This document shows, piece after piece, positions 3,039-56,251 of a DNA stretch of 64,000 bases; within the stretch, counting starts at the first letter, position 1; the number at the start of each line of letters is the position of its first letter. The stretch is from Thermoleophilaceae bacterium (GTDB lineage Bacteria > Actinomycetota > Thermoleophilia > Solirubrobacterales > Thermoleophilaceae): the NCBI GenBank assembly GCA_030446485.1, contig JAUJNF010000003.1, forward strand, positions 124,001 through 188,000, given 5' to 3'. The position numbers and the translations under genes are program-made. The notes beneath the pieces were generated by a model. The model saw only the letters and a program-made list of their open reading frames with translations. It made no database searches and was not told the origin of the DNA.

Positions 3039-3124
3039 GGCCGGAGGTGGCCATCGAGGTGGCCCGCGAAGCCCGGTTGGCCGGAGGTGGCCATCGAGGT
3101 GGCCCGCGAAGCCCGGTTGGCCGG
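3039..3124. repeat. 40-bp tandem repeat, 2.1 copies
   Basis: Two identical 40-bp units (3039-3078 and 3079-3118), beginning GGCCGGAGGTGGCCATCGAG, are followed by the first 6 bp of a third. The repeat lies 39 bp beyond the gyrA stop codon, so it falls in the 3' end of the gyrBA transcript. No function is evident. Confidence 0.85.
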
Positions 3125-3162: not shown

Positions 3163-5820
3163 CTACTCGTCCGCGGCGGGCTCGCCGGCGTTCGGATCGA
3201 GCGGCGTCTCGATCGCGGGCTCCGCGTCGATGCCGGGCGCCGCGTGGGCGTCGGCGCCGGTGTCCACCTCGTCGGTGAGCTCCGTGTCGGCAGCGCCCAT
3301 GCCCTCGGGCTCGGACCCGGTCTCCTCGCTCTCGATCACCGCGGCGGCTGTTTCCGCTGAGTCCTCCACGACCGGCGCGATGGCGCTCACGCGGTCCTCC
3401 TCCTTGAGGTTCATCACCCGCACGCCCTGCGAGGCGCGGCCGTAGCGCGAGATCCCGCGCACGCTCGTGCGCTGCACCATTCCGGCCTGTGAGATGAACA
3501 CGAGGTCCTCGTGCTCCCGCACGATCAGCGCGCCGGCCACACCGCCCTTTCGCTCGGTCAGCCGGATTGTCTGCACGCCCATGGCGCCGCGTCCCTTCAC
3601 CGGGTACTCGGAGATCGCCGTGCGCTTGCCGTAGCCGTTCTCGGTGACCACGAGGAGGTCGGTGTCGTCGCGGGCGATGTCCATGGCCAGGACGCAGTTG
3701 TCGCCGCGCTTGACGTTCATGCCCTGCACGCCGCTCGTGTCGCGGCCCATCGCCCGCGCCTGGGTCTCGTTGAAGCGCGCGGCCTGGCCCGAGCGCGAGA
3801 CCATGATGATGTCGTCCTCACCGCTCGTTCGCCGCACGGCCACCAGCTCGTCGTCGTCGCGGATGTTGATCGCGATGATGCCGTCGGCCTTGATCGGCGT
3901 GTTGTAGGAGAGGAACTCCGTCTTCTTGATCATGCCCTTGCGCGTCGCGAAGACCAGGTACTTGCCCTCGGTGAAGTCGCGCGTGGAGAGCACGGCCCGC
4001 ACGAACTCGCCCTCGCGCAGCGGGAGGATGTTCACGAGCGCTCGGCCCTTGGCGGTGCGCGAGGCCTCGGGTAGCTCGTAGACCTTCTGGCGGTAGACCT
4101 TGCCGCGGTTGGTGAAGAACAGCAGGTAGTCGTGGGTCGAGCACACGAAGAGGTGCTCGATGTAGTCCTCGTCCTTCATGTCCATGCCCATCACGCCGCG
4201 GCCGCCGCGCTTCTGCTGGCGGTAGGTGGCGAGCGGCAGCGACTTGATGTAGCCCGAGCGCGTGATCGAGATCACCATCTGCTGGTCGGCGATCAGGTCC
4301 TCGACGTCGATGTCGTCCTCGGAGTGGGTGACCTCCGTGCGGCGCTCGTCGCCGTAGCTCTCCTTGATCTCGAGCAGTTCCTCCTTGACGATGCTCCTCA
4401 CCCGCGACTCGTCGCCGAGGATCTCGCGCAGCTCCCGGATGCGCTCAACGAGGTCGGCGTGCTCCTGGCGGATCTTGTCGGCCTCGAGCGCGGTGAGCCG
4501 CTGGAGGCGAAGGTCGAGGATGGCCTGGGCCTGCTCGCGCGAGAGCTCGAAGCGCTGGATCAGGCCCTCGCGGGCGGCGTCAGGATCGGACGACCCGCGG
4601 ATGAGCTCGATCACCGCGTCCAGGTCCTCGAGCGCCACGAGCAGTCCCTCGAGGATGTGCGCGCGGGCCTCGGCGCGGCGCAGCTCGTACTTCGTGCGGC
4701 GCACGACAACGTCGCGCTGGTGCTGCACGTAGTTGTGGATGATCGCCCGGAGGTCGAGGGTGCGCGGCACGCCGTCGACCAGCGCCACCATGTTCACCCC
4801 GAACGTGGTCTGCATCATGGTGTGGCGGTAGAGCTTGTTGAGCGCGACCTTGGGGATCGCGTCGCGCTTGAGCTCGATCACGAGCCGCACGCCCGACTTG
4901 TCGGACTCGTCGCGCAGATCCGAGACCTCGGGCACGCGCTTGTCGTTCACCACCTCGGCGATCTTCTTGATCAGGCCCGAGCCGTCGTTGCGGCCGTCGC
5001 CCTTCGTCACCTGGTAGGGCAGCTCGGTGACGATGATCGCCTCCTTGCCCTGACGCAGGGGCTCGATGTGGGCGCGCGCGCGGACGATCACGCGCCCCCG
5101 GCCCGTCTCGTACGCGTCCTTGATCCCCTGGCGGCCGACGATGATGCCGCCGGTCGGGAAATCCGGCCCCTTGATGTGGCCCATGAGCCCCGCGACGTCG
5201 ATCTCGGGGTCGTCGATGTAGGCGATCACCGCGTCGATGGCCTCGCCCAGGTTGTGGGGCGGGATGTTGGTGGCCATCCCGACCGCGATGCCCGACGACC
5301 CGTTCACCAGCAGGTTGGGGAAGCGCGCCGGCAGGATCAGCGGCTCGAGCCGCGACTCGTCGTAGTTCGGTCCGAAGTCGACCGTGTCGGCGTCGATGTC
5401 GCGCAGGAGCTCCGTGGCTATGCGCGCTAGCCGCGACTCCGTGTAGCGCATGGCCGCCGGCGGGTCGGCGTCGACCGAGCCGAAGTTGCCCTGCCCATCC
5501 ACCAGCGGGTAGCGCTGAGCAAAGTCCTGCGCCAGCCGCACGAGCGTGTCGTAGATCGCCGAGTCGCCGTGCGGGTGGAAGTTGCCCATCACGTCCCCGA
5601 CCACGCGCGCGCATTTGCGGTAGGGGCGGTTGGGCTGCAGCCCCGACTCGTGCATCGCGTACAGCACGCGGCGGTGCACGGGCTTCAGCCCGTCGCGCAC
5701 GTCGGGGAGCGCCCGCCCGACGATCACGCTCATCGCGTAGTCGAGGTACGACGAGCGCATCTCCTCCTCGAGCCCGCGGGGCTCGATGGAGCCGCCCGTC
5801 AACTGATCAAACGCGGCCAC
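3163..5820 (-). CDS. gyrA: DNA gyrase subunit A
   Basis: Catalytic, DNA-cleaving subunit of gyrase (A2B2), which introduces negative supercoils. It is 885 aa, within the family range. The active-site tyrosine is Tyr126 in AMRYTESR. The quinolone-determining region reads [11 protein letters not shown] (Ser87, Asp91), a wild-type configuration. The gyrase-specific GyrA box is present (QKRGGRG, in the sixfold repeat C-terminal domain), which separates it from ParC. The last ~65 residues are a very acidic tail rich in Glu, Asp and Ala, typical of GyrA tails that tune supercoiling. It follows gyrB with a 136-bp gap that is mostly filled by a structured repeat element. The ATG start at 5820 gives the normal N-terminus. 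Confidence 0.98.
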
Positions 5821-5837: not shown

Positions 5838-5936
5838 CGGATCCTGCAAAGCGTCGCCACTCGGCGTCCTCGGCTCTCGGCTTGGCCCACCAAGCCTTCG
5901 AGCCTGCGTCCTTGATTGGCTCGCTTTTCGGATCCG
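5838..5936 (-). repeat. Structured intergenic element, copy A (gyrB-gyrA gap)
   Basis: One of four related ~100-nt elements in this window. Read on the minus strand it folds as nested helices. P0 is CGGATCC/GGATCCG, P1 AAAGCG/CGCTTT, P2 GCCAATC/GAGTGGC (one A.G mismatch), P3 GGCTC/GAGCC, and P4 GGCTTGG/CCAAGCC with a TGGG loop. The internal loops GA/GCA, AAGGACGCA/GAGGACGCC and GAA/GA are shared with the other copies. It starts 20 nt after the gyrB stop and ends 17 nt before the gyrA start. Confidence 0.85.
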
Positions 5937-5956: not shown

Positions 5957-9977
<4,021 letters not shown>

Positions 9978-42350: not shown

Positions 42351-42463
42351 TGGCCTTCGAAAAGCGAGCGAATCAAGGAAGCAGGGTCGAAGCTTTGGTG
42401 GGGGCATGGCCTGGGAACGGCGAGACCCGATGACGCCGAGTCGCGAAGCTTTGCAGGAGACCC
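42351..42463 (+). repeat. Structured intergenic element, copy B (qcrB-qcrC gap)
   Basis: Same element as copies A, C and D, here with the most diverged apical arm. Helices: P1 AAAGC/GCTTT, P2 GCGAATC/GAGTCGC (one A.G), P3 GGGTC/GACCC, with conserved loops AAGGAAGCA/GATGACGCC and GAA/GA. The outer P0 is weak (CCTTC against GGAGA with mismatches). It starts 19 nt after the qcrB stop and ends 4 nt before the qcrC ATG, so it must overlap the ribosome-binding region of qcrC. Confidence 0.8.
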
Positions 42464-55645: not shown

Positions 55646-55750
55646 CCGATGATCCGAAAAGCGAGTATGCCTAGGAAGCAGGGGTGAAGCCTTGGTGGGC
55701 CAAGGCGAACCCCGATGACGCAGGCAGACGACGCTTTGCAGGATCATCGG
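55646..55750 (+). repeat. Structured intergenic element, copy C (rpsR-rplI gap)
   Basis: 105 nt. Helices: P0 CCGATGATCC/GGATCATCGG (10 bp, perfect), P1 AAAGCG/CGCTTT, P2 GTATGCC/GGCAGAC (one mismatch), P3 GGGGT/ACCCC, P4 GCCTTGG/CCAAGGC with a TGGG loop. Conserved loops GA/GCA, TAGGAAGCA/GATGACGCA and GAA/GA. It lies on the strand opposite to the genes, and its P0 right arm includes the rpsR stop codon (55744-55746). Confidence 0.87.
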
Positions 55751-56142: not shown

Positions 56143-56251
56143 GATCTGGCCCCGAAAAGCGAGTATGCCAAGGAAGAGGGGGTGAAGCCTTGGTTCACCA
56201 AGGCGAACCCCTGATGACGCAGGCATACGACGCTTTGCAGGATGCCAGATC
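56143..56251 (+). repeat. Structured intergenic element, copy D (ssb-rpsR gap)
   Basis: 109 nt. Helices: P0 GATCTGGC/GCCAGATC (8 bp) plus CC/GG, P1 AAAGCG/CGCTTT, P2 GTATGCC/GGCATAC (perfect), P3 GGGGT/ACCCC, P4 GCCTTGG/CCAAGGC with a TTCA loop. It differs from copy C in the P0 arm, the P4 loop and scattered loop bases, so the two are not a recent duplication. The right end overlaps the ssb stop codon (56250-56252). Confidence 0.88.

What the first reader, a model, noticed from the sequence alone, without database searches (positions are those of the whole stretch)
5838..5936. Copy A lies in the gyrB-gyrA gap, in sense orientation
Almost the whole 136-bp space between gyrB and gyrA is this hairpin, read in the same direction as the operon. 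It could uncouple GyrA from GyrB expression by stalling RNase, ribosomes or polymerase. Copies A and B are sense to their operons while C and D are antisense, which argues against a simple cis-acting leader and for a symmetric hairpin role or insertion in either orientation.
Basis: partly seen in the sequence, partly recalled or inferred. Interest (0 to 1): 0.55.

Follow-up and report, generated by a model that had tools for sequence, protein, structure and literature searches.

The report
Mobile hairpin lodged between gyrB and gyrA
The hairpin between the two gyrase genes is not a gyrase switch but one copy of a small non-coding mobile element, scattered through genomes of one class of bacteria, that has landed repeatedly and in either direction in the gaps between paired-subunit genes.

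Summary
In detail: window 5838-5936 is a 99-nt hairpin (-53.7 kcal/mol, z -5.9) filling most of the 136-nt gyrB-gyrA spacer, read with the operon. Copies B, C and D are real and oriented as stated. Copy A is an insertion of a dispersed, non-coding, MITE-like element: 24 copies in this genome, the core motif in 128 of 399 genomes of its class (Thermoleophilia by record titles). Of 24 relatives with a readable gyrB-gyrA spacer, 20 lack it (spacer -1 to 75 nt) and 4 carry it (127-136 nt), two sense and two antisense. Filled and empty sites were found for nine further insertions. The stem is maintained by heavy compensatory change, while purine-rich internal loops stay fixed. ilvB-ilvN and purS-purQ are other recurrent landing sites. 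In the window's family most copies lie antisense, close to a stop codon, with an outer stem that differs from copy to copy. Young ~160-nt copies in other genera are flanked by TA on both sides (8 of 12), which points to a DDE transposase acting in trans. None was identified: Y1, RT and IS630-type genes do not track the element. Any effect on GyrA expression is untested.

The parts
5838..5936 (-). Copy A: whole hairpin in the gyrB-gyrA spacer, sense to the operon
   Evidence: fold, z -5.9; spacer comparison
5844..5930 (-). Copy A: conserved 87-nt core (CGAAAAGCGAG...CGACGCTTTGCAG)
   Evidence: matches in relatives repeatedly start and stop at query 7-93
5930..5936 (-). Copy A: 5' arm of the variable outer stem (CGGATCC)
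   Evidence: pairs with 5838-5844; a different sequence in other copies
5838..5844 (-). Copy A: 3' arm of the variable outer stem (GGATCCG)
5905..5913 (-). Copy A: 5' side of the conserved purine-rich internal loop (AAGGACGCA)
   Evidence: most of these columns at least 90% conserved across 40 copies
5863..5871 (-). Copy A: 3' side of the conserved purine-rich internal loop (GAGGACGCC)
42358..42456 (+). Copy B, with a 12-nt insertion, sense, between two genes of a split cytochrome b-type complex (names by eye)
55655..55741 (+). Copy C, antisense, between rpsR and rplI (names read by eye from translations)
56153..56240 (+). Copy D, antisense, between ssb and rpsR (names by eye); ssb stop codon 9 nt away
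5957..8389 (-). gyrB (host gene upstream of copy A)
3163..5820 (-). gyrA (host gene downstream of copy A)

Best explanation
Copy A is a short-form insertion of a Thermoleophilia-wide family of non-coding, hairpin-shaped mobile elements (MITE-like). The full-length unit is about 158-175 nt: a central ~65-87-nt core with fixed purine-rich internal loops, flanked by arms that extend the hairpin. A transposase supplied in trans, not identified, recognises the ends or the folded DNA and inserts the unit beside stop and start codons of neighbouring genes; young copies sit between two TA dinucleotides, mostly in CTAG/CTAA/TTAG, which in these G+C-rich genomes often means a TAG or TAA stop codon. The gyrB-gyrA spacer is one of several recurrent landing sites. 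The element was not made for gyrase; once transcribed it adds a strong hairpin to the gyrBA mRNA, which may change processing or coupling as a side effect. Shown: dispersal, insertion (empty sites), recurrent landing in both orientations, structure under constraint, TA flanks in young copies. Inferred: a DDE transposase in trans, selfish maintenance, and any effect on gyrA.
For: 24 copies in the 2.6-Mb genome and 45 in the complete relative G027; 18 of 31 family genomes positive by plain DNA search; core pattern in 128 of 399 class genomes with no reversed-pattern control match in any row. Two copies (L001, L002) are 99% identical over the core in unrelated places. gyrB-gyrA spacer: 4 of 24 filled, 20 empty, both orientations; G009, same genus as G012, is empty. 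Filled/empty pairs at 9 of 12 loci tried: L103, L028, L032, L037, L045, L110, L030, L047, L104; in L030 the insert lies cleanly between GGGCTGAGCG and ATGGGTGA. Compensation: 92.4% of cells paired against 70.5% shuffled, 214 double-change cells against 75.8 +/- 6.1, slid controls at most 43.4% paired. Young near-identical copies: unit 158-164 nt, TA on both sides in 8 of 12 with both ends visible. Same junction hit in several genera, in both orientations: ilvB-ilvN 5 genomes, purS-purQ 4. Whole ~160-172-nt hairpins appear as one insert at L103 and L047.
Against: No mobilising enzyme found: Y1_Tnp 0 of 31; RVT_1 in 4 of 31, absent from high-copy G000, G015, G026, G027; DDE_3 in 14 of 45 but absent from high-copy G260, G164 and G003 and present in genomes without the core pattern, G034, G039, G084, G108; no DDE_3 gene looked at has matching ends and no larger element with these ends was recognised in 1.84 Mb of fetched DNA, where the pairs of ends found look like neighbouring copies of the element. 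In the window's family the ends are not constant and TA/TA flanks are few (7 of 67 against 2.1 by re-pairing); copy A itself has no TA at its ends. About two thirds of the stop codons next to family copies are TGA (count by eye), which a TA target does not explain.
Confidence: 0.75

Rival explanations
1. A cis-regulatory or mRNA-processing hairpin kept by selection in particular operons (gyrBA, ilvBN, purSQ, leuCD) to set the ratio of two subunits, whatever its origin.
For: The same few subunit-pair junctions are hit repeatedly: ilvB-ilvN 5 genomes, purS-purQ 4, gyrB-gyrA 4. Coincident cross-genome pairs (about 27, counted by eye) exceed 1.5-4.7 expected for 2500-800 assumed junctions (junction numbers are my assumption). 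Structure is strongly maintained.
Against: Most relatives lack it at gyrB-gyrA, and both orientations occur at the same junction. The two strands fold almost equally well but expose different loops, so a sequence-specific mRNA role should fix orientation.
Confidence: 0.2
2. A hairpin that moves as single-stranded DNA or RNA, in which the purine-loop strand is the active molecule and the outer stem is made at insertion by fold-back copying of the host flank, including its stop codon.
For: Outer stems differ between copies with 99% identical cores. The distal arm matches the host arm through the stop codon and one base beyond. In L028 and L110 the distal arm mirrors host coding bases that are present in the empty site; in G027 gyrB 12 coding bases are mirrored. 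Wobble pairs favour the purine-loop strand: 28 G-T against 5 A-C in outer stems, p 7e-5.
Against: Mirroring beyond that point is absent on average and only 8 of 87 copies exceed the 99th percentile of re-paired flanks. L103 and L047 brought both arms with them. The core wobble test is not significant (29:18, p 0.14). No RT or Y1 enzyme tracks the element. No strand or replichore preference in the complete genome G031 (51:53 for the left end; replichores by eye).
Confidence: 0.2
3. A family of bidirectional transcription terminators that forms and spreads by recombination, without transposition.
For: Most family copies lie just downstream of a stop codon: right end -8 to 11 nt from one in 52 of the 65 intergenic copies whose right neighbour ends there.
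Against: Copies sit inside co-directional gene pairs that are essential or biosynthetic (gyrB-gyrA, ilvB-ilvN, leuC-leuD, purS-purQ), where strong termination should be harmful; no U-tract seen by eye; empty sites lack a comparable hairpin.
Confidence: 0.07

Closest known systems
RUP of Streptococcus pneumoniae
   Same: ~107-bp non-coding repeat in intergenic spacers, inserted at TA-containing targets, proposed to be moved in trans (PMC2229807, passages read)
   Different: RUP ends match IS630-Spn1; no matching IS found here. Here the stems are rewritten by compensation while internal loops stay fixed, and a roughly 160-nt longer form exists.
ERIC/RU-1 and Correia/NEMIS elements
   Same: Long hairpins in spacers; ERIC at gene 3' ends and Correia elements alter mRNA stability or RNase processing (PMC10969869 and PMC2229807, passages read)
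   Different: Sequences not compared here; hosts of another phylum (recalled); the outer stem here varies copy by copy.
Rickettsia palindromic elements (RPE)
   Same: 105-146-bp hairpin mobile elements with long stem-loops
   Different: RPEs insert inside coding sequences in frame (recalled); these lie at stop/start junctions.
REP/RAYT systems
   Same: Dispersed extragenic palindromes near gene ends
   Different: REPs are 20-40 bp (abstract of PMC3733652 as listed); their Y1 transposase family is absent from all 31 family genomes searched.
Integron attC sites (recalled)
   Same: Imperfect hairpin right after a stop codon with fixed unpaired bases
   Different: No cassette arrays seen, no constant outer boxes; copies scattered singly.

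Membership tests
MITE (miniature inverted-repeat transposable element) | short, non-coding, high copy, dispersed | tested here: met
   24 and 45 copies in G000 and G027, at least 71 in G031; core lengths vary by 1-2 nt so no conserved frame
MITE (miniature inverted-repeat transposable element) | presence/absence at orthologous sites | tested here: met
   9 of 12 loci with an empty counterpart; gyrB-gyrA 20 empty of 24
MITE (miniature inverted-repeat transposable element) | constant terminal inverted repeats | tested here: inconclusive
   Constant ends in young families of G260, G136 and G031; variable outer stems in the window's family
MITE (miniature inverted-repeat transposable element) | target-site duplication | tested here: inconclusive
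   TA on both sides in 8 of 12 young copies; 7 of 67 in the window's family against 2.1 expected; none at copy A
MITE (miniature inverted-repeat transposable element) | autonomous partner with the same ends | tested here: not met
   None recognised next to ten DDE_3 loci or in 1.84 Mb of fetched DNA
REP element of a RAYT system | RAYT (Y1_Tnp) gene in the genome | tested here: not met
   0 of 31 family genomes; control genomes ring in 5 of 14
IS630-type MITE | IS630 (DDE_3) transposase tracking the element | tested here: not met
   14 of 45 rows, no association with copy number by eye
IS5/IS427-type MITE | IS427-type transposase with matching ends | not tested
   Likeness of the ends recalled only; no search left
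Known structured RNA family | match to an Rfam 15 model | tested here: not met
   Window at gathering scores: only two tRNAs; five element loci at E up to 1: one chance-level match outside the element
gyrB-gyrA cis-regulatory leader | conserved presence and orientation at gyrB-gyrA | tested here: not met

The most novel reading that the evidence does not exclude
A mobile nucleic-acid hairpin of a new type: the purine-loop strand is the active form, it inserts at the stop/start junctions of operons, and it builds its own outer stem by fold-back copying of the host gene's last bases and stop codon, so that each copy carries a mirror of its landing site while the core stays constant.
Probability: 0.15. 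Interest if true: 0.8.

Novelty: new variant of a known kind. Interest (0 to 1): 0.5.

Why it matters
It turns a puzzling gyrase spacer into a trace of a mobile element that occurs across a poorly cultivated class, keeps landing between subunit genes of core complexes, and leaves a strong hairpin in their messages. Natural presence/absence pairs at gyrB-gyrA, ilvB-ilvN and purS-purQ offer a ready-made test of what an intercistronic hairpin does to subunit balance. The copy-specific outer stem is an open mechanistic question.

Tried and rejected
Conserved gyrase regulator: rejected by spacer comparison. Insertion into the loop of pre-existing terminator hairpins, to explain unique outer stems: rejected because the empty sites show no such hairpin to the eye. 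REP/RAYT: rejected, no Y1_Tnp. Reverse-transcriptase mobility: no link. IS630 mobility: suggested by TA flanks, but no gene association and no matching ends. Replication-strand targeting: left-end copies in G031 split 51:53 and the listed hits show no replichore preference by eye. Orientation bias (53 antisense against 10 sense between co-directional genes, p 3e-8) holds in the window's family but not in G031 (13 against 12), so it is not general. Flank mirroring: the strict test shows excess only to the stop codon and one base more, so fold-back copying is kept only as a rival. Known RNA family: none. Literature: no paper found that joins Thermoleophilia, Solirubrobacterales, Gaiellales or Solirubrobacter with such repeats (open-licence PMC papers only). 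Searches were seen as listings; papers opened: passages of PMC10969869 and PMC2229807.

Rows dropped: L017 and L021 as duplicates; copies closer than 60 nt to a locus end and repeats with identical core plus flank were dropped before the 87-copy set; three copies with long insertions (L009, L014, L031) were left out of alignment A1; copies more than 35 nt longer than the rest or above E 1e-3 were left out of the core wobble count (84 of 87 kept); G031 hits with another hit within 260 nt were left out of the orientation count. G111 is the same genome as G031 (same coordinates); both were searched, so one genome stands twice among its 45. Gene calls in the scripts come from a small codon-usage score of my own, not a standard caller.

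Full report
WHAT IS THERE. The window holds gyrB (ends 5957) and gyrA (starts 5820) on the minus strand, 136 nt apart. Bases 5838-5936 form one hairpin with -53.7 kcal/mol on the operon strand (shuffles -33.2 +/- 3.5, none of 200 as good) and -50.0 on the other. Three more copies lie in the window: B 42358-42456 (sense, with a 12-nt insertion, poor fold), C 55655-55741 and D 56153-56240 (antisense, strong folds). C and D lie on either side of a gene I read as rpsR, between rplI and ssb; B lies between two genes that I read as parts of a cytochrome b-type complex (names by eye).

A DISPERSED FAMILY. A DNA search of the window's own genome (2.6 Mb in 27 contigs, 76% complete) gave 16 matches at E <= 1e-3, two of them 99% identical over the core in unrelated places. 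A covariance model built from 40 copies raised this to 24, with 45 in G027 (100% complete) and at least 71 in G031, where only 150 candidates were scored. In the family, 18 of 31 genomes are positive by DNA search. The exact core pattern AAGGACGCAGGN{24,36}CCGAGGACGC occurs in 128 of 399 genomes of the class and 55 of 128 genera, with no match of the reversed control in any listed row. The scan of IMG/VR found one contig.

ANATOMY. Forty aligned copies share an 87-nt core. Stems change by compensation: 22 of 26 pairs show a change on both sides, 92.4% of cells are paired against 70.5% when 3' letters are shuffled, and slid structures reach at most 43.4%. Internal loops stay fixed, above all AAGGACGCA facing GAGGACGC. 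Preserved mismatches beside compensated stems argue against simple palindrome correction and for a constraint on the folded form (inference). The outer stem differs from copy to copy even where cores are nearly identical. In four copies (L038, L047, L103, L118) it runs 30-40 bp. In G031 and in the young families of G260 and G136 the long form is common: units of 158-164 nt in G260 and G136, with constant ends.

IT INSERTS. gyrA was found in 28 of 31 family genomes and the gyrB-gyrA spacer could be read in 24. Four carry the element (spacers 127-136 nt): G000 and G012 sense, G003 and G027 antisense. Twenty do not (-1 to 75 nt, median 9), among them G009, G010 and G011 of the genus of G012 and G002 of the genus of G003. 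For 12 other insertions I looked for the same place in relatives: 9 gave a clear empty site (L103; L028, L032, L037, L045, L110; L030, L047, L104), one (L112) is shared with a second genus, and two (L044, L105) were uninformative because only one flank matched. In L030 the host reads GGGCTGAGCG^ATGGGTGA and the insert is 102 nt. In L103 (leuC-leuD) and L047 the whole ~160-172-nt hairpin, both arms included, is the insert.

WHERE IT INSERTS. Of 87 distinct family copies, 53 are antisense to both neighbours in a run of co-directional genes, 10 sense, 12 convergent and 2 divergent; the other 10 overlap a gene call or lack a neighbour on one side (53 against 10, p 3e-8). Where the right-hand neighbour ends towards the element (65 copies), its stop codon lies -8 to 11 nt from the core in 52. 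In G031 there is no such bias (13 antisense, 12 sense, 9 divergent, 6 convergent). The same junctions recur: ilvB-ilvN in 5 genomes (3 sense, 2 antisense), purS-purQ in 4 (2 and 2) plus one purC-purS, gyrB-gyrA in 4 (Pfam names, leuC/leuD there only as aconitase-family domains). About 27 coincident cross-genome pairs (my count) compare with 1.5 to 4.7 if 87 insertions fell on 2500 to 800 shared junctions; these junction numbers are assumed, and some coincidences may be inherited.

HOW IT MOVES. Twelve young copies in G260 and G136 show both ends: TA on both sides in 8, on one side in 3, on neither in 1 (classed by eye). The setting is mostly CTAG, CTAA or TTAG, and several left flanks read like the stop codon of the preceding gene. 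In G031 4 of 10 listed copies (two of the ten are repeat records of the same sites) have a 4-bp direct repeat of this type. TA targets are reported for RUP, thought to be moved by IS630-Spn1 (PMC2229807, passages). A DDE transposase in trans is therefore my best guess. Against it: no Y1_Tnp (0 of 31), RVT_1 in 4 of 31 and not in the high-copy genomes G000, G015, G026 and G027, DDE_3 in 14 of 45 without association, and no matching ends. In the window's family TA/TA occurs in 7 of 67 copies with a readable outer stem against 2.1 expected, and a TGA/TCA pair in 5 against 1.05, so that family follows another rule or has older, reworked ends.

THE ODD PART. The outer stem in the window's family mirrors the host side up to the stop codon: matches of 64, 63 and 44% at its three bases against 49, 56 and 33% for re-paired flanks (59 copies), and 56 against 37% one base further; beyond that there is no excess on average. 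In L028 and L110 mirrored bases lie in the host gene and exist in the empty site; in G027 12 bases of gyrB coding sequence are mirrored downstream. Outer-stem wobbles lean to the purine-loop strand (28 G-T against 5 A-C, p 7e-5; 24 against 2 in the best-scoring stems), while the core does not clearly show this (29 against 18, p 0.14). This would fit an active single-strand form and fold-back copying, but L103 and L047 brought their arms with them, so I keep it as a rival.

VERDICT. Copy A is a real and strong hairpin, and an insertion of a mobile, MITE-like element that is not specific to gyrase. Its effect on gyrA is open. I found no description of the family (a library of open-licence papers only).

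Noticed in passing
L311:15618-16017 and L245:1065-1277: Head-to-tail tandem arrays of the full-length element with a period of 163 nt, in two different organisms.
   Followed up: partly
L322:12631, L326:5632, L322:6186, L318:3792, L318:7014: In G031 copies are nested inside other copies, at about the same point of the host copy's conserved core (GCGAGGC / GGACGCAGG).
   Followed up: partly
L030, L006, L079, L025, L046 (ilvB-ilvN); L028, L041, L097, L036 (purS-purQ): The same subunit-pair junctions are hit in different genera and in both orientations.
   Followed up: partly
L294 (IMGVR_UViG_3300026300_000009): One IMG/VR contig carries a long-form copy whose ends resemble those of L103 (AGTGGCCCCGTCCG).
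   Followed up: no
window 3039-3118: Exact 40-nt tandem duplication just beyond the 3' end of gyrA.
   Followed up: no
L014/L017 (G000:C27:227926-228052): A copy with about 22 extra bases that replace part of the middle stem.
   Followed up: no
L340 (G260:C311): A young copy with CA/TG in place of TA/TA flanks, just before an ATG that reads like pheT (by eye); an exception to the TA rule.
   Followed up: no
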